A DNA stretch of 64,000 nt from Eubacteriaceae bacterium (GTDB lineage Bacteria > Bacillota > Clostridia > Eubacteriales > Alkalibacteraceae). Positions within the stretch are counted from its first letter, which is position 1. Every line of letters begins with the position of its first letter. This document shows positions 18,642 through 49,266 of this stretch, one piece after another. The notes under the pieces were generated by a model, which had not been told where the DNA came from, did no database searches, and was given only the letters and a program-made list of their open reading frames with translations. Both the position numbers and the translations under genes were made by a program. The stretch is from NCBI GenBank assembly GCA_013335935.1, contig JAAXUP010000001.1, positions 1 to 64,000 on the forward strand, read 5' to 3'.

Positions 18642-18857
18642 ATGATGGAAGTCAGTTACAAAAAGTTGTGGAAGCTTTTAATTGACAAAGATATGAAGAA
18701 GAAGGATTTGCAATTGGTTGCCAGGATTAGCTGGGCGTCAGTTACAAAACTATCAAAAGGCGAGACTATTAGCATGGACGTGTTAATGAAAATTTGCATG
18801 GCACTTGATTGTGATATTTCAGATATAGTTGAGTTTGTAAAACTGGAAGAAAATTAG
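18642..18857 (+). CDS. small XRE-family regulator (YozG type)
   Basis: About 71 aa, almost entirely one helix-turn-helix domain: KKLWKLLIDKDMKKKDL, then ARISWASVTKLSKGETISMDVLMKICMALDCDISDIVEF. Regulators of this short type are common beside restriction-modification and DUF262 genes. I start at ATG 18642, after GAGGGTGA, not at the frame opening 93 nt upstream. It is followed by a DUF262 remnant and then by the three-gene restriction-like operon, which it may control. Confidence 0.75.
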   Translation: MMEVSYKKLWKLLIDKDMKKKDLQLVARISWASVTKLSKGETISMDVLMKICMALDCDISDIVEFVKLEEN

Positions 18858-18907: not shown

Positions 18908-19060
18908 ATGAAAGCAAGATCCATTAAGCCTATTTGAAGAATTTACTAAGGGAGCTATTGGTTCACAATATGTTATTCCTGTCTATCAAAGGAATTATAC
19001 TTGGAAAAAAATAAGCAAGTTCAGCAATTATTACAAGATATAAAACTCATTAATAAATAA
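18908..19060 (+). pseudogene. 5' remnant of a DUF262 (GmrS-type) gene
   Basis: From 18930 the frame reads LFEEFTKGAIGSQYVIPVYQ followed by RNYTWKK, the N-terminal hallmark of DUF262 proteins (the GmrSD/BrxR-type fold). The ATG at 18908 is in another frame, and a second frame change at about 18999 is needed to continue with QVQQLLQDIKLI. Everything beyond about 45 codons is gone. It appears to be an earlier defence gene, partly replaced by the operon that follows. Confidence 0.7.
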
Positions 19061-19088: not shown

Positions 19089-20321
19089 ATGCACATGTAT
19101 TTGACATATTCAAAGAAAGAAATTGAAGATGCTTCTAGCAAAGAACTACAAATAGTAAAAGATTATAGTTCGAATTTACGAGTACATTTGGATAATATCA
19201 AAAGACGTATTTTAATTGACGATAATACACTAATAAGTATAGTTGCAGCAATCAATTCAGGGTTTAATATTATACTTTATGGCCCTCCTGGGACCGCAAA
19301 ATCAACAATTTCTGAATTTTTGCCAGTAGAAATGTATGGTGCAAAATGTAATGTACATACAGCAGATAGTGAGTGGAATGTTAGAAAGGTTATTGGAGGA
19401 ATTACTGTGTCCTATGACAATTCAAAAGGTACTCCTGTAGAAAAAATATGGCCTAAAGATGGTTACATAGTTAATGATATCATGCAGTGCTATGAAAGCC
19501 GATTGGAAACAACTGACTTTGATACAGTCTTTACAGTTATTGATGAGTTTAATAGAACAAACATGGATGAATGCCTTGGTCCAATGTTTACTGCTATGGG
19601 GTCAGACAATAAAACACTTCGTCTAGATTATAACAAAGGATTTAATGACGATTTTATGGAGATACCCGTACCAAAGGGATACAGAATGATTTGTAATATG
19701 AACAAGTACGATAGAACTTTTACAAATGAATTGTCGGATGCTTTGTCAAGAAGATTTAAATGGATATATGTAGGTGCTCCAGATGCAAGTAAGTATATTG
19801 AAGAAGAAAGTATTGTTGAAGGTAATGTTTTTGGGAGTATTGGCTCAATATTACCAATAAAACCAGTTAACCTTGAAGATATAAAACCGTATATTCGAAG
19901 TGACTTTTTTATAAACAATATTGTAAAAAGAATATATGAAATTATTAATGATTTGCGAGCAGACCTAGAAGTAGGAACATCATATAAAATAGATGCAGTT
20001 AAGCTTGCGTACCACTTCTTTTCTTTAAAATTGGCTTTGATTGATTGGACGTATTTTAGTGGTACTGATTTAATCAAAACTAATGCTGCTAGAACTGTCG
20101 TTGACGCTGCTGTGGGTATTGTTGATCCAGTTAAAAATATAGAATTTATTGAAAAGTTAAAAGAAATAATTAAGGATATTGTCGATGCTGCAATTGTAAT
20201 GACAGTGATTCCGGCTTGTGAGTCGCTTGAAGATACTGAAGCAATAGAAAGGAATAAGTTAAGATTTACGGATTATAGTAGATGTATTGCTGAACTGGAT
20301 CGTATGAAACTATTGTTTTAG
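19089..20321 (+). CDS. McrB-like AAA+ ATPase of a restriction-like operon
   Basis: A 410-aa AAA+ ATPase. Walker A is GPPGTAKS (65-72) and Walker B is FTVIDEFNR (148-156). MICNMNKYDRT stands where McrB carries its NTAD motif and sensor I, and DALSRRFKW supplies the arginine finger. About 60 N-terminal residues precede the AAA core, and no DUF3578-type DNA-reading domain is evident. The next gene has a PD-(D/E)XK nuclease, so by analogy with McrBC, LlaJI and BsuMI this is the motor. RBS GGGGAGGAAG precedes ATG 19089. The composition is AT-rich compared with the host genes. Confidence 0.85.
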   Translation: MHMYLTYSKKEIEDASSKELQIVKDYSSNLRVHLDNIKRRILIDDNTLISIVAAINSGFNIILYGPPGTAKSTISEFLPVEMYGAKCNVHTADSEWNVRKVIGGITVSYDNSKGTPVEKIWPKDGYIVNDIMQCYESRLETTDFDTVFTVIDEFNRTNMDECLGPMFTAMGSDNKTLRLDYNKGFNDDFMEIPVPKGYRMICNMNKYDRTFTNELSDALSRRFKWIYVGAPDASKYIEEESIVEGNVFGSIGSILPIKPVNLEDIKPYIRSDFFINNIVKRIYEIINDLRADLEVGTSYKIDAVKLAYHFFSLKLALIDWTYFSGTDLIKTNAARTVVDAAVGIVDPVKNIEFIEKLKEIIKDIVDAAIVMTVIPACESLEDTEAIERNKLRFTDYSRCIAELDRMKLLF

Positions 20322-20332
20322 GGGAGGGTTTT

Positions 20333-21667
20333 ATGGAAAAAGCGGAATACTTCCCGAGAAAAAAACTTTTTGAAGAGGTTCAGGACTTAATATCAACTTT
20401 CTATTCTACAGGTGACTATTTTTCGGAGCAAGTTTCTAATTACGAATCTATGCTGAGTAGAAGTGGTGAAAGAGACGAGTTTTACTATTCACTTTACTTG
20501 TTATCAACGCTTTCCAATGTTAATGATTTAATTAAACTTGCTGAAAAAATCATTAGAAATATGAATATGTTTCGAGTAAGAAGAAAAGTGACTTCAACAG
20601 AGGATTTTTCAGGGGAAATAGATATTGAAGAATATACTAATAAAAATCATATCGATAGAGTTATTCCTAGAGAATATCCATCAATTATAAAGTATTCAAC
20701 ATTTCAGCTACCTGAATATCAGTTGACACTTTATATTTTAAAACGTTGCGAAGATATTTATCGAAGTATTTTTGCTTTTTTAGGCGATAATACAAAAATC
20801 TCATTCTTTAAATACGCCCATAAACATTATGATAAAATTCAATCTATGAAAACAATATTACTGAGAAGATATGGTATTTCATATGATCGTAGAGAAACGT
20901 ATTTGACACTAAAAAAGAAAGTTGTATATAGATATAATAACAGAAAAATAATTAATGATTCTTATATTCGTTTAATGTCAGTGTTTGAGAAAATAATTTC
21001 ATTTGGTGGTATAGATTTTGATTCTCGTGAATCGATAGAAATATTTGATCACTATGAATCATTTGATGATAGACTGTTTGAAATATGGTTAATCCGTCAG
21101 AGTGCTAAGTTAGTAGCAGAGAATATGAGAGTGAAGGATTCTGATATAGAGTACGTACCTCTGTTCAAAGCTCGAAATGAAAACAAGTTTGCAGTTTCAA
21201 TAGATAACGGTTCATATCGAATCGAGATACTATTTCAAAATCGAAAAAAATTTATGCCTAGAGATGATTTAAAATGGTATTGGAATAATGATGGCAAAAA
21301 AGAAGAAATTGGAGCAATACCAGACCTTATTTTTTTAAAGTATATGCACGGCTCAAAAGAACCTGCTCAGATTGTTCTAGTAGATGCTAAAAACAGAAAA
21401 TGGACATTTAGAGACGATATGCAGCGAATTAAAGCTGAAATTGTACAACAAGTCTATATACATGATAATTTCATAGCGCTTTTTGAGGATAGATACAAAT
21501 CAATACTTGTTGCTCACAATATTGAAGAGTATCAAACAAGAAAATACAACCATAAAGATAAAATGGGATATGAAATAGATGTTGTTTCATTGAACTTCAG
21601 TGAAGGTATGCTAACAGATTCGTTAAAAAAATATGCTGCTGATTTATTTAATTATTTAGAAATGTAG
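20333..21667 (+). CDS. PD-(D/E)XK nuclease subunit, DUF2357/McrC-like
   Basis: A 444-aa protein. The C-terminal third has a PD-(D/E)XK active site: IPD at 329-331 and VDAK at 350-353, preceded by an LFEIWLIRQ helix as in McrC and DUF2357-type nucleases. The first 240 residues are helical with no domain I recognise. Paired with the AAA+ ATPase 11 bp upstream, it should be the cleavage subunit. RBS GGGGAGGG precedes ATG 20333. Family assignment is from motifs only. Confidence 0.75.
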   Translation: MEKAEYFPRKKLFEEVQDLISTFYSTGDYFSEQVSNYESMLSRSGERDEFYYSLYLLSTLSNVNDLIKLAEKIIRNMNMFRVRRKVTSTEDFSGEIDIEEYTNKNHIDRVIPREYPSIIKYSTFQLPEYQLTLYILKRCEDIYRSIFAFLGDNTKISFFKYAHKHYDKIQSMKTILLRRYGISYDRRETYLTLKKKVVYRYNNRKIINDSYIRLMSVFEKIISFGGIDFDSRESIEIFDHYESFDDRLFEIWLIRQSAKLVAENMRVKDSDIEYVPLFKARNENKFAVSIDNGSYRIEILFQNRKKFMPRDDLKWYWNNDGKKEEIGAIPDLIFLKYMHGSKEPAQIVLVDAKNRKWTFRDDMQRIKAEIVQQVYIHDNFIALFEDRYKSILVAHNIEEYQTRKYNHKDKMGYEIDVVSLNFSEGMLTDSLKKYAADLFNYLEM

Positions 21668-21677
21668 GTGAAATTTT

Positions 21678-22622
21678 ATGCGTAGTTATGAAGAAGAATT
21701 TAACGAACTAAAATTAGATACGTCTAGAATTGATAGTTTCAAGGCTTCAGGCGAAGATGGAACACGGATATTTAATGTTTTGAATTCGAATATTAAAACT
21801 TTAAAAACTGTAGGTGAATATATTGATACAATGTATTCGCAGACTACATATGACGCAACACATAAGCAAAAGAACAGAAGAGTTAAGGAGTTTAATTTTA
21901 GAAGCTTAGATAACCGTACTGATGCACGAGCTGTTACTCGAAGCAATATAGTTATTGCTGCAGGAACAAAATTTGGTGGGTATGATAGCGGATTTGTTAC
22001 ATTGTTGTTATACATTTTACTTTTGGATATCGGAAGTGGAAAGTCCGTAACGGCAATAAGAACTAATCAATTTTTAAATGACTTGCCAGTGTTCATAAAA
22101 AGAAATCTTTATTTATACGCAAGAAAAATTGTTGCATCAGGATCGCTTCTTACAGATAATATATATCAAGTAATTGTTGTTTTCTTTGGTGATGAGCCAC
22201 TATATAAAGCTTTTTTAGAATTTGCAAAGGACCATTATCCAGACGAGGAAAGGATTACAGAGTTATTTGTGCGAGAAGCAGCAGACCCTAGTAGTCCTAT
22301 TACAAAGAGACTAGAGAATTTTCAGAGAAGTGCGCTGAAGAAGGACGCTCTCTATGCTGTGATTTTTTATTCTTTAGATCAGTACACAAGAAAATGTAAA
22401 ATGCATGGGCTCAGGACTGGCAATAAAATTGTAAGAGCTGATGATTTTTTAATGGGATACTTGAATTACTTTAATGTTGTTTTTGAAGGGGCATTAAGTT
22501 GGCTTGGTCAGATTTCTGGTGGGGATGATATTGATACTTTAAAGCAATTTATAGTTGATGATTTATCGGAAGATCAAAGGCGGGAATTGTACTCATGCAT
22601 CAAAATTGCTTTTGATTTATAA
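21678..22622 (+). CDS. unknown 314-aa protein, third gene of the restriction-like operon
   Basis: I do not recognise this family. It is soluble and mainly helical in appearance, with one hydrophobic stretch (GFVTLLLYILLLDIG, about residues 103-117) and a long C-terminal helical region. No catalytic motif stands out. It lies 10 bp after the nuclease gene and is the last gene before a convergent terminator, so it is most likely a subunit of the same complex. BsuMI also needs three restriction genes, which makes a role in target recognition or assembly plausible but unproven. Confidence 0.6.
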   Translation: MRSYEEEFNELKLDTSRIDSFKASGEDGTRIFNVLNSNIKTLKTVGEYIDTMYSQTTYDATHKQKNRRVKEFNFRSLDNRTDARAVTRSNIVIAAGTKFGGYDSGFVTLLLYILLLDIGSGKSVTAIRTNQFLNDLPVFIKRNLYLYARKIVASGSLLTDNIYQVIVVFFGDEPLYKAFLEFAKDHYPDEERITELFVREAADPSSPITKRLENFQRSALKKDALYAVIFYSLDQYTRKCKMHGLRTGNKIVRADDFLMGYLNYFNVVFEGALSWLGQISGGDDIDTLKQFIVDDLSEDQRRELYSCIKIAFDL

Positions 22623-22632
22623 AAAAAAGTCA

Positions 22633-22661
22633 GGAATAGCTCGTGAGCTATTCCCTTTTTT
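22633..22661. terminator. bidirectional terminator between the convergent R-like and M-like operons
   Basis: A perfect 10-bp stem GGAATAGCTC / GAGCTATTCC with a 2-nt loop, T-rich on one side and an A-run on the other. The stop codon of the minus-strand methyltransferase (22648-22650) lies inside the hairpin. Confidence 0.85.
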
Positions 22662-24165
22662 GTGCTATAAACAGCAGTTCATTGATTTTATCTTTTTTTT
22701 CACTTTTACGACTTTCAAATTTTATTGAACTTACTTCCACCTTTTTGTAAGAATCTGAAATAAAATAGTTGGGGTCTGATAAAAAATTTTCAATTTTTTC
22801 CACACTAGAAAGTGAGTTTTTATTGTGATTGCTTAGGCTATCAGAATAACTAATGATCACATATTTACATTGCGATGTCAGAATTAATCTGAAAAGTAAA
22901 TCTTCAAACGTATTACGTCGGTTGTAGTTAGTATATCCCCTTTCCAATAACCTATTTTCTCCAGCTGCTCCGGCTATTCCTTCTTCGTATTCAAGTATAT
23001 AATCTGCAATATTATTGTAGTCTGCAATCAAATTCAATAAATGATAATTAGAATCATATATTCGCCAATTGTAGGGCGGGTCTAAATATAAAATGTCATA
23101 GGGTTGAGGAATGTTTTGAATTATTTCAAAGGTGTCCTCACAATATACAGAATGTTTTTTGCTAGAAGATATTATTTCAGGAACCACAAGTCTAAAAGTT
23201 TGTTTTGTATTTTCTCTATAAGTTTTGTAAAAAGCTTGATATGTCGCACTTGTATTTGAGAACAAGGCAACGGCTTCTAATAAAGCACATTGAAGATAAT
23301 TATATTCATGTGAGGATATTAACCCATCTTTAAACCACAACAGAGAAAGATTATTAATAGTATCTATTTTACGACCATGTATTTCGGAAAAGAACATTCT
23401 ATTACCAACATGGTTATTTCGATGAGATAGTGCAATAAGTTTTGATTTGACTCTATGCATAATAGTTGAATCGTGGCTATCTAGCATTAATGTGTTCAAA
23501 TTTTCTATAGCATCTTTTAGTCCACTCACATTATAAGGAGGCTTATAAATTCTTTGAAGTAATGTAATAATTTTAGATAGGGCTTCTGATTTGTTTTTTA
23601 TTTTCTTCAAATCCTTTATTTGTGCTACTATACTTTTTTGAGATACTAGATTAAAGTACCGCGATTTATATCCCTGAAAACAGTAGTTACGCCATATAAA
23701 GTCTGGCGCTAGTAGTTTATAACGATAAATCGGGTCATCGTAATCTTCTACTGATGCAATAAATGAAAGATAAACTAATAGTTTAAAGGCATTTGTATCT
23801 CTGATTGACTGCATGTAGAATTCATTGTTCGTGTTTCTGTTTTGGTTAATGAGCTTTTCAGAAAACGAGTGTAATTCGCCGTTTAAAACTAGTTCATTTA
23901 ATTTTCTTATAGATAAACAATTACTTGAAAATAATAAGCTAAACGAAGGTATTTCATTAAGTTCGAGATATACGTTTCCAAGTAATCTAGATGTAGTATT
24001 CACGTCATTTGAAATTACTGTGTACCCCTTTGATTTAAAATACTGACCAACATTTGTTGTGCCGGCAAATGCATCAAATATCGTATAGGTTTCAGGGGTT
24101 AATAATTGAGATTCAGCATATATTACATTTAATGTTTTGCTTTTATTTCCCATATATTTTTTCAT
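22648..24165 (-). CDS. D12-class adenine-N6 DNA methyltransferase, 505 aa
   Basis: Dam/D12-type methyltransferase. SAM-binding motif I is DAFAGTTNVGQYF (about 31-43) and the catalytic motif IV is LYLDPPYNW (DPPY at 362-365). The gap between motifs I and IV is about 320 residues, far more than in Dam (about 140), so the target-recognition region is greatly enlarged. Its start overlaps the end of the upstream methyltransferase by 4 bp. Opposite the AAA-nuclease operon, it probably protects the host DNA from that complex. Confidence 0.85.
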   Translation of the reverse strand: MKKYMGNKSKTLNVIYAESQLLTPETYTIFDAFAGTTNVGQYFKSKGYTVISNDVNTTSRLLGNVYLELNEIPSFSLLFSSNCLSIRKLNELVLNGELHSFSEKLINQNRNTNNEFYMQSIRDTNAFKLLVYLSFIASVEDYDDPIYRYKLLAPDFIWRNYCFQGYKSRYFNLVSQKSIVAQIKDLKKIKNKSEALSKIITLLQRIYKPPYNVSGLKDAIENLNTLMLDSHDSTIMHRVKSKLIALSHRNNHVGNRMFFSEIHGRKIDTINNLSLLWFKDGLISSHEYNYLQCALLEAVALFSNTSATYQAFYKTYRENTKQTFRLVVPEIISSSKKHSVYCEDTFEIIQNIPQPYDILYLDPPYNWRIYDSNYHLLNLIADYNNIADYILEYEEGIAGAAGENRLLERGYTNYNRRNTFEDLLFRLILTSQCKYVIISYSDSLSNHNKNSLSSVEKIENFLSDPNYFISDSYKKVEVSSIKFESRKSEKKDKINELLFIAQKRE

Positions 24166-25520
24166 GAATCATCCTCCGGCATTTCCGTAAAACAAGTAAT
24201 TATATATTCTTTTGCAAGAACTTTATTTGGCTTTTGCCCAAAATTGCGATACATATGTGCTGCGTTATCGAAAATGATATTATTTCCATAGTATTCCCTG
24301 CACATACTTTCTATTTCTTCAATAGATAAAATACATTGAGCTGTGTCAGAATAACTAATAACCATATTCAAATTTTTCTGGTAGCAAAGTCTAAGCATGG
24401 TTTTAAATTCATCCATAGCTTGTCTCTTTATACAAAAACTAGATTGAAATCTATCGGTACGATATCGTCCAAAAAACTCAATGTCTGGATAGTCATATAA
24501 TACCAAGGTTTCTGGTATATGATAAAAACGAGAATAGTGAGCATTGGTATACGGAGGATCAACATAAACTGTTTTAACTTTATATTCTTCAATGATAGAA
24601 CTAGCAAGAAGCTCCTTATAATCTTTGCAAAAGGCCTTATTAAGAGGATTGCCATATTCATAATTTTTTTTATAATCATAAAGTTTTTCAATAAATAACG
24701 ACTTTATAGTTTGTCTCTTTTTTTCAATGATTTTTTTCCGTTCCCTGAGATTCACATTATCTCGAGGTGCATCAAGTTTTTCGGAAACTGGTTTGATTTT
24801 TTGTGGCTGTGCAAAATGGTCACCTACACTAATAACAGTGAGGTTGAGGCAGTACAACAGGAAACTCAAGTATATATTATACTGTTCTTCGGAAATAGAT
24901 TTAGTCTTTAATAACATTCGTAGAGAATAGACAAGGCTGTCTATTTCTATACATTGTGATAAGCTGAAATATGGATTACCATAATACGTTGTAAAGAGCA
25001 TATGTGGAAAAATATAAGGATCTTTTTTATATTTTTGTATATTTTCTTCTTCAAAAAAACTTAAACAGTCATTAAATGAAACATGCTTATTGATTGTTTC
25101 GCTTCCATAATATGGAGAATTGTCAAAAAATGAAACAAATTCGTCGAATGACTGACCGTAATATGTTTCACCAATATGAGATAATAACTCTTCCTCTTTA
25201 AGAAGAGGTGTGCGAAAAATTTCTTTTAAACTGTTGATATTCACTTCGTAGTATTTATTATATATAGTGTCTGGTAGCAGTGAGTCGATGACGTATTTTT
25301 TGTGTGATTCTATCAAGGCAATTGCTGCAATATGACTGTACTTTTGATAGTCATTTGAAAGAACACAATAATCTTTTAATAAATATTGCCCTACGGTATT
25401 TGAACCTGCAAACAAATCCAAAACTGTACCATTTTTTGGTGTAACATTTTTTATAGCGCAGCTTAGTGGTTCAAGCAGTTTTGTTTTAATTCCTAGATAT
25501 CTAATTAGTATATTTACCAT
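24162..25520 (-). CDS. second D12-class adenine-N6 DNA methyltransferase, 452 aa
   Basis: Motif X-like RYLGIKTKLLEPL near the N-terminus, motif I DLFAGSNTVGQYL (35-47) and motif IV VYVDPPYTNAHYSRFYH (DPPY at 321-324). Again the recognition region between motifs I and IV is large (about 280 residues). It differs enough from the next gene to have its own target. Two methyltransferases in one operon usually mean an asymmetric recognition sequence, one enzyme per strand. RBS GAGGTGA precedes the ATG at 25520. Confidence 0.85.
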   Translation of the reverse strand: MVNILIRYLGIKTKLLEPLSCAIKNVTPKNGTVLDLFAGSNTVGQYLLKDYCVLSNDYQKYSHIAAIALIESHKKYVIDSLLPDTIYNKYYEVNINSLKEIFRTPLLKEEELLSHIGETYYGQSFDEFVSFFDNSPYYGSETINKHVSFNDCLSFFEEENIQKYKKDPYIFPHMLFTTYYGNPYFSLSQCIEIDSLVYSLRMLLKTKSISEEQYNIYLSFLLYCLNLTVISVGDHFAQPQKIKPVSEKLDAPRDNVNLRERKKIIEKKRQTIKSLFIEKLYDYKKNYEYGNPLNKAFCKDYKELLASSIIEEYKVKTVYVDPPYTNAHYSRFYHIPETLVLYDYPDIEFFGRYRTDRFQSSFCIKRQAMDEFKTMLRLCYQKNLNMVISYSDTAQCILSIEEIESMCREYYGNNIIFDNAAHMYRNFGQKPNKVLAKEYIITCFTEMPEDDS

Positions 25521-25840: not shown

Positions 25841-25921
25841 ATCATTCTCCTCCTCGCTCCGAATAGCAGTATAACATATTACTCGAAAAGAGTAAAGAAA
25901 ATACTCTTTTTGAGTAATTGA

Positions 25922-26490
25922 TTCTTTCTTATAAAACATAGTCTCGAAGCCATCGGCTCTAAGGGACAAACCCTTTATCCAGGATGGTGTTATTCCCATT
26001 TGATCGCAAATGACTTAAAGGAAACATCATTGCTACATTCAATAATTATTTCATCATGCACGTGTCCGCAGATAAAGCAGTGGCGGAGTGTTTTCTTAGC
26101 ATAGGCCAGGATATCGCGGCTGATTGCTTGAACAATATTTTCTGTAAACTTCGGGCAATAACTTTCTATGCGTTCCCATTTATTTGTGATTCCAATGCCT
26201 TCATAGGTAACAGACTCGCCATCAAATTGATTTGGTTCAATTTTAGGTTTTACATAGGAAAGCCTCCTACCTGAGGAAAGCTCAATGAAAAGCATTCCTT
26301 TCTCATAGAAGAACTTAATACTATGTGTTTTGGTATGTGTTCTCGTACGGACCGCTACTTTAACAGCTCTATCGATATTCCACCACAGTTTTGTTATATT
26401 TGGATTTGTTGCTCTCCAAGAATCAACCAGTGGTTGCAGTTCATCTTCAGTTAAGCCCATTTCCAACACACCCATAGCCTTAAGTGCTAT
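25922..26490 (-). pseudogene. decayed, inverted 3' part of a phage family-A DNA polymerase
   Basis: Runs on the minus strand from ALKAMGVLEMG through RLSYVKPKI and HVHDEIIIEC to DGFETMFYKKE. It matches the C-terminal part of the intact polymerase gene at 32213-35074 segment by segment (for example GHVHDEIIIEC versus AHVHDEVICEV). A frameshift near 25990-25999 splits it, a short internal deletion precedes HVHDE, and everything upstream of the ALKAMG segment is missing. It sits upstream of the XRE-methyltransferase operon in the opposite direction to the living phage polymerase. Confidence 0.85.
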
Positions 26491-32212: not shown

Positions 32213-35074
32213 ATGAAAACTCTGTCTATTGACATTGAGACTTTTTCTGATATCGATCTTGGCAAATGTGGTGTTTACCGCTATACCGATAGCCCTAACT
32301 TTGACATCCTGCTTTTTGCCTTCAGCATAGATGAAAGCCCGGTTAAATTGATCGATCTGGCTTGTAAAGAACAGATGCCTAAAGAAATAATCGATGCTAT
32401 TTTAAGCCCGTCGGTTATCAAGACGGCGTTTAATGCCAACTTTGAACGGGTGGCTCTGATGAGGTATCTGAGTGTCGTTTTAGGAAAGAATATCTACCTT
32501 GATCCATCTTCCTGGAGGTGTAGTGAGGTTCAGGCAGCGATGCTTGGACTCCCTCTCCACCTGGAAGGTGTAGCAAAGGTGCTAAGACTTCAAGAACAGA
32601 AAATGTCAGAAGGAAAGACTTTGATCCGGTACTTTTGTATACCCTGCAAACCAACAGCGGCAAACGGAGGTAGGTTTAGGAACCTGCCTTCAGATGCGCC
32701 GGAAAAGTGGGAGGTTTTTAAGCAGTACAACATTCGTGATGTTGAAGTGGAGCTGGCTATTCGCAAAAAGCTAGAAAGCTATCCCATACCGGATGCAGAA
32801 CAGGATCTTTATGTTCTTGATCAGAAGATCAATGACAGAGGTTTTCAGGCGGATATGGATTTCGTAATGCAGGCGATTTCATGTGATCATCAATTCACCA
32901 TAGCTGCTACAGAAAAAGCCTATGAAATAACTGGTCTTGAGAATCCGAATTCAGTATCCCAGCTTAAGGAATGGCTGTTGGATCGAGGTGTTGAGGTAGA
33001 AAGTTTGTCCAAGAAGAATGTAACCGAACTTGTGGGTGAAACTGAGGGTGAGGTTGAGGAAGCGCTGAAGCTAAGGCTACTTATGGCAAAGACTAGCGTT
33101 AGAAAGTATGAAGCCATCGAACGTGCTGTTTGCACGGATGGAAGGGTTCATGGGCTCTTACAGTTTTACGGGGCAAATCGAACAGGTCGATGGTGTTTAA
33201 CTGGTGATCATGAAGTGCTTACTTCTGATGGGTGGAAGAGACTTGATGAATGGACAGGAGGCTATATTGCTTGTTGGTCACCTGCAACAGAATTCATTTC
33301 TTTCCAAAAATCAAAAACAGTGAACTTTGACTTTGAGGGAGAATTATATCGAATCGAATCCCAACGATGTTCTCAGTTGAGTACTTCTGAACACAAAATG
33401 GCGTATTGGGGGAAAAATGGATCTTGGGAAGTATCGACTGTAGCTGAACTTTCAAATAGGAGGTTTAGCATTCCATTTACTGGCCGATGCGTATCAAACT
33501 GTAGCATCGAACATGACGAATTGCGTGTTTTAATTATGACTCAAGCCGATGGTCATTTTACAAGAGAAGGTGATTTGAAGTTTCATTTCAGTAAGGTTAG
33601 AAAAATCGAGAGGTGCAAAAAACTATTACGGAGAGCTGAGATTATTTTTACAGAGCGTAAATATAATAACGAGGCAACAGTAATTTCGATTAGATCAAGA
33701 GCCTTACCGTTATGGCTGAGACTGTTTAGAAACAAGACATTTCAAATGTGGCTTTTAGATGAATCGCCAGATGTCATATTCGATGAAATAGAGTATTGGG
33801 ATGCGTATAGGTGCGGACCAAATTCAATTCAATACACGACGATCAATAAACAGAATGCAGATATTATTCAGGCTCTTGCACATATCTCGGGAAGAGCTGC
33901 AACAATTGTTACAAAAACCAGAGGCAATGAAAAATGGAATACTGCGTACAATGTGAATATCTGGCTGAAACCAGGCGGACATAATGAGATACGGAATAAA
34001 CCGACTAAAGAATTTTACAAAGGTAAGGTCTATTGTGCGGAAACAAATACCGGTTTCTTTGTAATACGACGTAATGGAAGGGTATGGATAACTGGCAACT
34101 CAGGGCGCTTGGTTCAAGTTCAAAATCTACCCCAGAACCATCTGAAGGATTTGAAACTAGCTAGGAATCTAGTGAAAAAAGGGTGTTTTGAAGATATAGA
34201 GCTTCTGTTTGGAAACACCCCTGGTGTCCTATCGGAACTGATTAGAACCGCTTTTGTACCTAAAGAGAATCACCGGTTTATCGTAGCCGATTTCTCAGCG
34301 ATTGAGGCTAGAGTCATCTCTTGGCTTGCTGGAGAGAAATGGCGTATGGAGGTATTCGCTTCCCATGGGAAGATCTATGAAGCTGCTGCTGCAAAGATGT
34401 TTCATGTGCCTATTGAAAGCGTTACGAAGGGAAGTCCTTTAAGACAGAAAGGTAAACTTGGAGAATTGGCTTGTGGATTTGGTGGGGGAGTCGGGGCACT
34501 AAAAGCAATGGGTGCTCTGGAAATGGGTGTAGAAGAACATGAACTGCAAGGACTTATTGACAACTGGAGAGCTGCGAACCCTCATATCGTGAATTTTTGG
34601 TGGGAAGTGGATAAAGCGGCGATAACAGCGGTTAAAGACAAGACTAAAACCAGAACCCATGGGATCACCTTCACCTATAAAAGTGGGATGCTCTTTGTGA
34701 CACTTCCCTCTGGCAGAAATCTGGTGTATGTGAAACCGAAGCTAATGATCAACAGGTTTGATCGGGATGGTCTCACTTATGAAGGCATTGGTGCCACCAA
34801 AAAGTGGGAGAGGATTGAAACCTATGGCCCAAAAATCGTTGAAAACTGTGTTCAAGCAATTGCAAGGGATCTTCTTGCTCAAGCCATGATAAGACTGGAT
34901 CAGAGGGGATTTGACATCGTAGCCCATGTGCATGACGAGGTGATCTGTGAAGTTCCAATGGGAGTATCGTCCGTTGAGGAGGTCTGCCAGATTATGAGCA
35001 TACCACCCAAATGGGCGACAGGATTACCCCTTAAGACTGATGGGTATGAGTGTGAGTTTTATCAGAAAGACTAG
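32213..35074 (+). CDS. phage family-A DNA polymerase interrupted by an intein
   Basis: A 953-residue precursor, of which 651 are polymerase. The N-terminus is a 3'-5' exonuclease-like domain beginning LSIDIETFSD (D7, E9). The polymerase domain carries motif A (VADFSAIEARVISWLAG), the motif B region (LRQKGKLGELACGFGG) and motif C (AHVHDEV). An intein of 302 residues splits the conserved TGRW-SGRLVQVQNLPQN block. After splicing the enzyme would be full length for this phage family. RBS AAGGAGGTGG precedes ATG 32213; VapE and DUF2815 flank it. Confidence 0.93.
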   Translation: MKTLSIDIETFSDIDLGKCGVYRYTDSPNFDILLFAFSIDESPVKLIDLACKEQMPKEIIDAILSPSVIKTAFNANFERVALMRYLSVVLGKNIYLDPSSWRCSEVQAAMLGLPLHLEGVAKVLRLQEQKMSEGKTLIRYFCIPCKPTAANGGRFRNLPSDAPEKWEVFKQYNIRDVEVELAIRKKLESYPIPDAEQDLYVLDQKINDRGFQADMDFVMQAISCDHQFTIAATEKAYEITGLENPNSVSQLKEWLLDRGVEVESLSKKNVTELVGETEGEVEEALKLRLLMAKTSVRKYEAIERAVCTDGRVHGLLQFYGANRTGRWCLTGDHEVLTSDGWKRLDEWTGGYIACWSPATEFISFQKSKTVNFDFEGELYRIESQRCSQLSTSEHKMAYWGKNGSWEVSTVAELSNRRFSIPFTGRCVSNCSIEHDELRVLIMTQADGHFTREGDLKFHFSKVRKIERCKKLLRRAEIIFTERKYNNEATVISIRSRALPLWLRLFRNKTFQMWLLDESPDVIFDEIEYWDAYRCGPNSIQYTTINKQNADIIQALAHISGRAATIVTKTRGNEKWNTAYNVNIWLKPGGHNEIRNKPTKEFYKGKVYCAETNTGFFVIRRNGRVWITGNSGRLVQVQNLPQNHLKDLKLARNLVKKGCFEDIELLFGNTPGVLSELIRTAFVPKENHRFIVADFSAIEARVISWLAGEKWRMEVFASHGKIYEAAAAKMFHVPIESVTKGSPLRQKGKLGELACGFGGGVGALKAMGALEMGVEEHELQGLIDNWRAANPHIVNFWWEVDKAAITAVKDKTKTRTHGITFTYKSGMLFVTLPSGRNLVYVKPKLMINRFDRDGLTYEGIGATKKWERIETYGPKIVENCVQAIARDLLAQAMIRLDQRGFDIVAHVHDEVICEVPMGVSSVEEVCQIMSIPPKWATGLPLKTDGYECEFYQKD
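33194..34099 (+). other. intein with degenerate LAGLIDADG-type middle domain
   Basis: Residues 328-629 of the polymerase precursor. Block A is CLTGDHEVLTSDGWK (Cys1). Block B is LSTSEHKM, keeping the TxxH pattern. Block F is KVYCAETNTGFFVIRRNG and block G is VWITGN, with Ser as the first C-extein residue. The residue before the terminal Asn is Gly, not the usual His. The middle contains LIMTQADGHF, which resembles a first LAGLIDADG motif; the expected second motif (near EIEYWDAYR) is poor. Homing may therefore be lost while splicing is kept. Confidence 0.88.
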
Positions 35075-47670: not shown

Positions 47671-49266
47671 ATGAGTGATGAAAATGTTCTGTTTACTCCA
47701 ACAGAGTATATGCTCCCGACATCTCACTATGATGAATGGAGGGCACAACACACCATAAACTTCATCGAAAACCTCAAACACACGAAGGGCGAATGGTACA
47801 ACAAGCCTTTTAAACTTCTTCCTTGGCAGGACACCATCATAAGAAATTTGTTCGGGGTGATAAAACCAAGCGGTTACCGTCAATTCACAACAGCTTATGT
47901 GGAGATCGCCAAGAAGCAAGGCAAAACCGAGCTGGGCGCAGCACTCGCTCTTTACATGCTAACTGCCGATGGAGAAAAAGGTGCAGAGATCTACAGCTGT
48001 GCGGCAGATCGTGCGCAGGCAAGTTTGATCTATAACGTAGCCGTGGATATGATCACACTTTGCCCAGCTCTGAAAAAAAGACTAAAAGTTGTGGCTTCCC
48101 AAAAGCGGATCGTATATCCTGCCATGAATTCCTTCTATCAGGTGCTATCCAGCGAGGCATACTCAAAGCATGGGATATCTCCTACAGCAGTTCTCTTTGA
48201 TGAGACTCATGTAGCGAACCGAGAGATGATGAACGTTATGCTCCATGGTGCCGCTGATGCGAGGAAACAACCGATCAACTTCCTGATCACGACTGCTGGA
48301 AATGATTTTAATAGTATTGGATATGAACTCCACCAAAAAGCAGTCGATGTTTTAAAAGGAAGAAAGGTTGATCACACCTTCTATCCCACCATCTATGCTG
48401 CAGATGAGGATGATGATTGGACAAAGCTGGAGGTCTGGGAGAAAGCAAATCCTAGTCTTGGTGTGACTGTTGATGTAGAAAAAATGCAGATCGCCTGTGA
48501 AAATGCCAGGCAGAATCCTGCCGAGGAGAATCTGTTTAAACAACTAAGACTATGTATTTGGGTTAAGCAGTCAGTTAGATGGATGCCTATGCATGTCTGG
48601 GATGAGTGCAAGTTTTTAGTTGAAGAGCATGAACTAGTTGGTAGGGAGTGCTATGGAGGACTTGATCTCTCAAGCACTACAGATATCACAGCTTTTGTCC
48701 TGGTATTTCCTCCAAGATATGACGAAGAAAAATATGTCGTGCACCCTTACTTCTGGATCCCGGAAGACAATCTAAAACTTCGAGTTCGAAGAGATCATGT
48801 TCCTTATGATATTTGGGAGAAGCAGGGTCATATAAAAACAACTGAGGGAAATGTGGTCCATTATGGATATATAGAAACCTTTATTGAAGATTTGGGAACG
48901 AAGTTTAATATCAAAGAGATTGCTTTCGACAGGTGGGGTGCTGTACAGATGGTTCAAAATCTGGAGGGTATGGGATTTACAGTTATCCCATTCGGTCAAG
49001 GTTATAAAGATATGTCGCCGCCAACGAAAGAGCTCATGAAGTTGACTCTTGAAAAGAGACTAGCCCATGGAGGTCATCCAGCGCTCAGATGGATGATGGA
49101 TAATATCTTTGTAAAAACAGATCCTGCTGGAAACATCAAACCAGATAAGGAAAAATCGACAGAAAGGATAGATGGTGCGGTTGCAACGATTATGGCTTTA
49201 GATCGATCGATTAGAAATGAAAACAGGGAAAGTGTTTATGAAGGTAGAGGGATATTAATCATATAG
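47671..49266 (+). CDS. terL: terminase large subunit
   Basis: A 531-aa packaging motor. ATPase Walker A-like AKKQGKTELGAALALYML, Walker B LFDETHV, and the C-terminal nuclease domain beginning CYGGLDLSSTTDITAFVLVF and ending with the conserved DGAVATIMALD. It translocates and cuts phage DNA into HK97-type proheads. No strong RBS precedes ATG 47671, 4 bp after the HNH gene. Its stop codon abuts the stop of the opposing gene with no gap. Confidence 0.93.
   Translation: MSDENVLFTPTEYMLPTSHYDEWRAQHTINFIENLKHTKGEWYNKPFKLLPWQDTIIRNLFGVIKPSGYRQFTTAYVEIAKKQGKTELGAALALYMLTADGEKGAEIYSCAADRAQASLIYNVAVDMITLCPALKKRLKVVASQKRIVYPAMNSFYQVLSSEAYSKHGISPTAVLFDETHVANREMMNVMLHGAADARKQPINFLITTAGNDFNSIGYELHQKAVDVLKGRKVDHTFYPTIYAADEDDDWTKLEVWEKANPSLGVTVDVEKMQIACENARQNPAEENLFKQLRLCIWVKQSVRWMPMHVWDECKFLVEEHELVGRECYGGLDLSSTTDITAFVLVFPPRYDEEKYVVHPYFWIPEDNLKLRVRRDHVPYDIWEKQGHIKTTEGNVVHYGYIETFIEDLGTKFNIKEIAFDRWGAVQMVQNLEGMGFTVIPFGQGYKDMSPPTKELMKLTLEKRLAHGGHPALRWMMDNIFVKTDPAGNIKPDKEKSTERIDGAVATIMALDRSIRNENRESVYEGRGILII

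What the first reader, a model, noticed from the sequence alone, without database searches (positions are those of the whole stretch)
19089..25520. BsuMI/LlaJI-like restriction-modification block built with two N6-adenine methyltransferases
Seen: a three-gene plus-strand operon (McrB-like AAA+ ATPase, PD-(D/E)XK protein, unknown 314-aa protein) converges on a minus-strand operon of two different, long D12 methyltransferases led by an XRE regulator; a terminator separates them. Known: BsuMI (ydiR-ydiS-ydjA with ydiO-ydiP) and LlaJI pair two C5-cytosine methyltransferases with AAA-driven restriction genes; McrBC has no methyltransferase. Inference: this is a multi-subunit, NTP-driven restriction system protected by adenine methylation of an asymmetric site, with the third gene as a new subunit.
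Basis: partly seen in the sequence, partly recalled or inferred. Interest (0 to 1): 0.75.

Follow-up and report, generated by a model that had tools for sequence, protein, structure and literature searches.

The report
Motor-driven restriction system with detachable recognition subunit
This is a five-gene bacterial restriction-modification system in which a McrBC-like motor nuclease probably cuts DNA that two adenine methyltransferases have not marked; an unknown third restriction protein turns up in a phage fused to a completely different nuclease beside the same two methyltransferases, which suggests it is the part that reads the target sequence.

Summary
A plus-strand operon (GTPase-type AAA+, 444-aa nuclease, 314-aa unknown) converges on a minus-strand XRE-M452-M505 operon across a bidirectional terminator. 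The 444-aa protein is McrC-like (best structural match E. coli McrC, third YdjA-YdiS of BsuMI; profile match E 3e-10). All five genes recur in the same convergent layout in a Lachnospiraceae genome (43-65% identity).

The kind is known: McrBC-related type II RM systems with paired methyltransferases (LlaI, BsuMI, LlaJI). Adenine versions already exist: LlaI, and E. coli plasmid pTE_T100_3 (two D12 MTases, LlaJI-type nuclease, AAA).

The new part is the third gene. The AAA protein lacks the N-terminal DNA-recognition domain of McrB and R1.LlaJI. In a phage contig, a homologue of the 314-aa protein is fused to an HNH nuclease and sits directly before homologues of both methyltransferases, in a record where no AAA or McrC-like gene was found. 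The same module and methyltransferase pair thus occur with two unrelated cutting engines. Best reading: the 314-aa protein is a detachable target-recognition subunit. Main rival: an adaptor that borrows the methyltransferases for recognition. Nothing was tested on DNA; only three loci carry the family.

The parts
18651..18857 (+). HTH_26 (Cro/CI-type) regulator, possible controller of the restriction operon
   Evidence: Pfam HTH_26 E 4e-20; region conserved upstream of the broken AAA orthologue in R. hungatei, 75% DNA identity
19089..20321 (+). McrB-like AAA+ protein (predicted GTPase), 410 aa, without an N-terminal recognition domain
   Evidence: AAA_5 2.9e-7; McrB structures 5e-6; Walker A at residue 65, NKYD at 205-208, RRF at 221-223; 65% identical orthologue in L014
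20333..21667 (+). McrC-like PD-(D/E)XK nuclease, 444 aa; D331 ... D351-A-K353
   Evidence: Foldseek top hits E. coli McrC 6ut6_G (2.9e-4) and, third, YdjA-YdiS 9a5m (6.3e-4); profile vs PF10117 proteins E 3.1e-10; catalytic residues invariant; 57% in L014
21678..22622 (+). U314: proposed target-recognition subunit, 314 aa, no known family
   Evidence: 44% in L014; homologue fused to HNH_2 nuclease next to the same MTase pair in L072
22632..22655 (.). bidirectional intrinsic terminator between the convergent operons
22648..24165 (-). M505: D12-class N6-adenine DNA methyltransferase (relatives include LlaI/FokI-type MTases)
   Evidence: MethyltransfD12 3e-18; DPPY motif at 362-365; LlaI/FokI-type hits; 42% in L072, 62% in L014
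24162..25520 (-). M452: second, different D12-class N6-adenine DNA methyltransferase
   Evidence: MethyltransfD12 1.1e-13; DPPY motif at 321-324; 44% in L072, 61% in L014
25529..25840 (-). XRE-family regulator of the methyltransferase operon (corrected start)
   Evidence: HTH_19 7.5e-12; an HTH_3 domain is fused to the M452 homologue on pTE_T100_3 (4e-13)
25868..25918 (-). putative promoter (25896-25868) overlapping two operator-like palindromes TACTCNNNNNGAGTA (25880-25894, 25902-25916)
   Evidence: 3 matches in the window against 0.05 expected; promoter-like site; inverted repeat I1

Best explanation
A McrBC-related type II restriction-modification system. M452 and M505 are inferred to methylate adenine, one on each strand of an asymmetric site. 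Unmethylated DNA is bound by the 314-aa protein (U314), which gives sequence specificity in trans because the McrB-like motor has no recognition domain of its own. U314 hands the DNA to the GTP-driven AAA ring, which with the McrC-like PD-(D/E)XK subunit translocates and cuts. An XRE protein represses the methyltransferase operon through two palindromes; an HTH_26 protein may control the restriction operon. Shown by sequence: the gene families, the McrC relationship, the conserved five-gene unit, the missing N-terminal domain, and the U314-HNH fusion beside the same MTase pair. Inferred: m6A product, asymmetric site, U314 as DNA reader, nucleotide used, cleavage and autoregulation.
For: McrC identity of the 444-aa protein. 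McrB signature NxxD motif in a 410-aa AAA with Walker A at residue 65. Five-gene conservation in L014. In LlaJI the specificity-determining subunit is R1, whose N-terminal half is unique (PMC1459862), and an N-terminal B3 domain binds the site in H. pylori LlaJI (PMC7680126, PMC12707154). MTase-coupled loci with a short AAA (window, L014, L002, L003, L015/L058) all have an extra gene in the restriction operon; those with a long AAA (L004, L005, L008, L060, L061, L065) have none. L072: U314-HNH fusion followed by M452 and M505 homologues; homology 51.7 bits against at most 11.3 in 1000 shuffles, and the only non-orthologous hit in 3268 ORFs; the reverse search returns U314 at 8.5e-16 and nothing else in 291 genomes. 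No AAA or McrC match in the L072 record.
Against: No activity, methylome or DNA-binding data exist. The fusion rests on a single phage contig. U314 has no detectable similarity to uncharacterised proteins of LlaI, to third subunits of the actinobacterial systems, or to N-terminal domains of long AAA proteins, though two-sequence profiles are weak. Its structure model is unusable (pLDDT 43). A short McrB without MTases or an extra gene exists (L046), so a short AAA alone does not demand a third subunit. R1.LlaJI itself showed no GTPase activity (PMC1459862). All U314 loci carry the MTase pair, so an adaptor role is not excluded.
Confidence: 0.62

Rival explanations
1. U314 is an adaptor that docks the nuclease engine on the methyltransferases, which themselves supply sequence recognition, as the modification subunits do in type III enzymes.
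For: U314 is found only beside the M452/M505 pair (3 of 3 loci), so it could bind the proteins rather than the DNA; this works equally well with an HNH fusion.
Against: LlaJI, the characterised relative, recognises its site through the R1 subunit (PMC1459862). The MTases sit in a separate operon in the window and in L014. Two different MTases would have to serve one nuclease.
Confidence: 0.2
2. A type IV-like McrBC enzyme (cuts modified DNA) that happens to lie next to a pair of orphan adenine methyltransferases; U314 recognises a modified base.
For: Motor and nuclease are McrBC-like; GmrSD (type IV) sequences lie beside both the window and L072 systems.
Against: Five-gene conservation in L014; the MTase pair travels with U314 even when AAA and McrC are replaced by HNH (L072). 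A nuclease that cut the product of its neighbouring MTases would be self-destructive.
Confidence: 0.08
3. U314 is an accessory or regulatory subunit (assembly factor, inhibitor or abortive effector), with site recognition done by the McrC-like protein's N-terminal part or an AAA insert.
For: The 444-aa protein is longer than the McrC chain in 6ut6 (339 residues); its first 58 residues are poorly modelled; no fold is assigned to U314.
Against: Fusion to an HNH nuclease in a record with no AAA/McrC match makes a role tied to the AAA/McrC engine unlikely.
Confidence: 0.1

Closest known systems
LlaI (Lactococcus plasmid pTR2030; probable copy on pUCCL629C = L069)
   Same: Adenine-methylase annotation, short McrB-like GTPase (337 aa), LlaJI-family nuclease, and a three-gene restriction cassette (PMC1459862 and the title of O'Sullivan et al. 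1995 cited there). M505 is similar to LlaI/FokI-type MTases.
   Different: In LlaI the methylase is, from memory, one two-domain FokI-like protein (broken in L069); here there are two separate genes in their own convergent operon. The AAA is only about 25% identical (E 1e-4). L069's uncharacterised proteins show no similarity to U314.
BsuMI (B. subtilis ydiO-ydiP / ydiR-ydiS-ydjA)
   Same: Pair of MTases, short GTPase (343 aa) in a three-ORF restriction cassette (PMC1459862); the 444-aa model matches the YdjA-YdiS entry 9a5m.
   Different: YdiR could not be compared with U314.
LlaJI (pNP40, L065) and the E. coli plasmid pTE_T100_3 system (L005)
   Same: Paired MTases plus McrB-like and McrC-like restriction subunits; L005 has homologues of both M452 (29%) and M505 (33%), converging on the restriction operon.
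   Different: Long AAA (585-599 aa) with its own N-terminal domain and no third gene; LlaJI itself uses 5mC MTases; the L005 nuclease is RE_LlaJI (8e-31).
McrBC (E. coli, T. gammatolerans)
   Same: GTPase with NxxD motif; 444-aa protein structurally closest to McrC.
   Different: No modified-base-binding domain on the AAA; MTases present; extra subunit U314.
PcaI (AAA + DUF2357 REase + one 5mC MTase, PMC8989522)
   Same: Experimentally shown McrBC-like engine restricting unmethylated DNA and protected by a cognate MTase.
   Different: One 5mC MTase, CCNGG site, no third subunit.

Membership tests
McrBC-related type II RM (LlaI/BsuMI/LlaJI kind) | McrB-like GTPase subunit | tested here: met
   AAA_5; McrB structures at 5e-6; Walker A and NxxD motifs
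McrBC-related type II RM (LlaI/BsuMI/LlaJI kind) | McrC-like PD-(D/E)XK nuclease subunit | tested here: met
   Foldseek McrC and YdjA-YdiS; hhalign E 3.1e-10; D331, D351, K353 invariant
McrBC-related type II RM (LlaI/BsuMI/LlaJI kind) | Adjacent pair of DNA methyltransferases | tested here: met
   Two MethyltransfD12 proteins, conserved in L014
McrBC-related type II RM (LlaI/BsuMI/LlaJI kind) | Cuts unmethylated DNA; MTases protect the same site | not testable with these tools
   Needs methylome and restriction assays
RE_LlaJI (PF09563) nuclease family | Nuclease matches PF09563 | tested here: not met
   No PF09563 match for the 444-aa protein or anywhere in the genome; L005 nuclease matches at 8e-31
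BsuMI/LlaJI in the narrow sense | C5-cytosine methyltransferases | tested here: not met
   Both MTases are D12 N6-adenine class
LlaI | Short GTPase in a three-gene restriction cassette with adenine MTase | tested here: met
   410-aa AAA with Walker A at 65; three plus-strand genes; D12 MTases (PMC1459862)
LlaI | Third subunit homologous to that of LlaI | tested here: inconclusive
   No similarity of U314 to either uncharacterised protein in L069 by BLAST or hhalign, but profiles are shallow
Type IV McrBC | Modified-base-binding N-terminal domain on McrB | tested here: not met
   Only 64 residues precede Walker A
Type IV McrBC | No cognate methyltransferase | tested here: not met
   MTase pair conserved with the operon in L014

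The most novel reading that the evidence does not exclude
U314 is a new family of portable DNA-recognition subunit that has been coupled in nature to two unrelated cutting engines, a GTP-driven McrB/McrC motor (as a separate protein) and an HNH nuclease (as a fusion), while keeping the same adenine methyltransferase pair. It would explain what the third gene does in this kind of system.
Probability: 0.55. Interest if true: 0.68.

Novelty: new variant of a known kind. Interest (0 to 1): 0.55.

Why it matters
LlaI and BsuMI have three restriction genes while LlaJI has two, and I found no published account of what the third gene does. If recognition is a detachable subunit, the same reader can be tested alone, fused to HNH, or with the McrBC motor. 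That makes the question of how an AAA motor without its own DNA-reading domain is directed to a sequence testable, and offers a natural swap between a simple and a motor-driven restriction enzyme with the same protection.

Tried and rejected
Sequence look-ups of the 444-aa protein in plasmids, phages, viral contigs (single sequence) and 67 genomes of the order gave nothing; relatives came only through the AAA partner. A single-sequence scan of genome contigs failed, the alignment scan found L014. Solved-structure searches by sequence for 444 and 314 were empty. The U314 structure model was too poor to search. I looked for U314 in LlaI proteins, the 398-aa and 264-aa third subunits and N-termini of long AAA proteins: no match. 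The candidate third subunits of LlaI and of the Paraburkholderia/Cryobacterium systems showed no nuclease fusion in plasmids. I considered that a short AAA always implies a third gene; L046 breaks that rule for McrBC without MTases. I considered a phage-module reading because of the neighbouring polymerase remnant; L014 has the system away from phage genes. BsuMI YdiR could not be fetched (control genomes give no loci).
Full report
Observation. Pfam gives AAA_5 for the first gene and MethyltransfD12 for both minus-strand proteins, and nothing significant for the 444-aa and 314-aa proteins. PADLOC calls the MTases type II (E 1.7e-42 and 1.2e-28) but has no model for the restriction proteins. 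A bidirectional terminator at 22632-22655 separates the operons. The XRE gene starts at about 25840 (103 aa), because the longer ORF runs through a frameshifted remnant of a phage DNA polymerase. Two copies of the palindrome TACTCNNNNNGAGTA overlap a promoter-like site upstream of it, against 0.05 expected in the whole window. An HTH_26 gene lies before the AAA gene.

The AAA protein. It is closest among solved structures to McrB (5e-6). Walker A is at residue 65, and it has the NKYD form of the NxxD motif at 205-208 and RRF at 221-223. The NxxD motif marks McrB-like GTPases (PMC11090510). Only 64 residues precede Walker A, so the DNA-reading N-terminal domain of McrB (PMC1459862) and of R1.LlaJI (PMC7680126) is absent.

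The 444-aa protein. Relatives lie directly after related AAA genes in Pseudarthrobacter, Cryobacterium, Mycobacterium, Paraburkholderia and viral contigs. Conserved D331 and D351-A-K353 fit PD-(D/E)XK. A five-sequence AlphaFold model (pLDDT 57) matches E. coli McrC first (6ut6_G 2.9e-4; 7vsr_M 4.1e-4) and YdjA-YdiS of BsuMI third (9a5m, 6.3e-4). These are weak global fits (TM about 0.2-0.3), but independent profile evidence agrees: hhalign against four proteins that all match PF10117 gives E 3.1e-10 with the catalytic residues aligned, and two relatives match PF10117 themselves (L003 7e-4, L062 3e-26). It is not an RE_LlaJI protein.

Conservation. L014 (Lachnospiraceae UBA9414) has the AAA (65%), 444 (57%), 314 (43-44%), M505 (62-65%) and M452 (61%) in the same convergent arrangement, with a MATE transporter and a MarR gene inserted between the two cassettes. 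Ruminiclostridium hungatei (G348/L012) keeps only a broken, partly inverted AAA gene and the HTH region, and no M505 homologue was found in that genome. The family was otherwise absent from the sampled class and phylum genomes.

The kind is known. PMC2614495 names LlaI, BsuMI and LlaJI as McrBC-related type II systems that cut unmethylated DNA and carry paired type IIS methyltransferases. PMC1459862 reports that the GTPases of LlaI (337 aa) and BsuMI (343 aa) are short and come from three-ORF restriction cassettes. L069 is probably the LlaI cassette: its AAA is 337 aa, followed by a LlaJI-family nuclease, with broken adenine-methylase genes upstream and AbiA downstream; identity to the published record was not checked. 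On pTE_T100_3 two D12 MTases homologous to M452 and M505 converge on a LlaJI nuclease and a long AAA. So adenine methylation in this architecture is not new. The CoCoNuT survey likewise notes that McrB GTPases are often associated with methyltransferases (PMC11090510).

The third gene. Among the fetched MTase-coupled loci, those whose AAA lacks an N-terminal domain (window, L014, L002, L003, L015/L058) all carry an additional gene in the restriction operon, of three families with no detectable similarity (U314; the 389-398-aa family; the 264-aa MTaX1 protein); those with a long AAA (L004, L005, L008, L060, L061, LlaJI) carry none. The set is small and was collected through the AAA or the MTases, so this is a pattern, not a statistic; L046 is a short McrB without MTases or extra gene. 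The decisive clue is L072 (IMG/VR 2724678943_000003): a 470-aa protein whose N-terminal part is homologous to U314 (27% over 234 aa, E 7e-17) and whose C-terminus is HNH_2 (1e-11), followed at once by homologues of M452 (44%) and M505 (42%). The homology scores 51.7 bits against at most 11.3 for 1000 shuffles and is the only non-orthologous hit among 3268 ORFs of all fetched loci; the reverse search of 291 genomes finds only U314 (8.5e-16). MTase similarity to L072 extends through the middle regions (34-39%), which allows but does not prove a shared site. No AAA or McrC-like match was found in the L072 record.

Inference. The simplest account of one U314 domain and one MTase pair with two unrelated nucleases is that U314 carries target recognition, the job done in LlaJI by R1. 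The strongest rival is that U314 docks on the MTases and borrows their specificity. Both are separable by DNA-binding and MTase-deletion tests. Site asymmetry, m6A chemistry, GTP use and regulation are inferred from families and precedents, not shown.

Verdict. A real, intact-looking member of the LlaI/BsuMI/LlaJI kind, with a new third-subunit family and a natural swap of cutting engine. New variant of a known kind; interest 0.55.

Noticed in passing
window 28000-64000: A siphovirus-like prophage region (sigma-like regulator, DNA polymerase 32213-35074, then a long plus-strand series of structural-looking ORFs) begins just right of the RM block.
   Followed up: partly
window 25911-26487 (-): Diverged, frameshifted C-terminal remnant of a second phage DNA polymerase (65% DNA identity to the intact one, opposite strand) directly upstream of the XRE gene.
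   Followed up: partly
window 18912-19040 (+): Short remnant of a GmrSD_N (DUF262) gene between the HTH gene and the AAA gene (E 6.7e-4, below the family cut-off); L072 also has an intact GmrSD gene (691 aa) right after its MTases.
   Followed up: partly
L014:10899-12688: A MATE transporter and a MarR regulator sit between the two convergent cassettes, as if inserted at the terminator.
   Followed up: no
L015:2808-9464, L058:2709-9359, L003:3997-10231: A second five-gene version (two MTases of N6_N4 or related type, a 389-398-aa unknown, short AAA, McrC-like nuclease) in Paraburkholderia, viral contigs and a Cryobacterium plasmid; the unknown proteins are 41% identical to each other and not detectably related to U314.
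   Followed up: partly
L002:7015-7809: The third gene of the Pseudarthrobacter pASPHE301 system is an MTaX1 (methylase-associated X1, PF20296) protein, which links that unexplained Pfam family to a McrBC-like restriction operon.
   Followed up: no
L005:7815-9305: On pTE_T100_3 an XRE-type HTH is fused to the N-terminus of the M452 homologue, while in the window it is a separate gene before M452.
   Followed up: no
window 47694-47708: A third exact copy of the TACTCNNNNNGAGTA palindrome lies inside the prophage.
   Followed up: no
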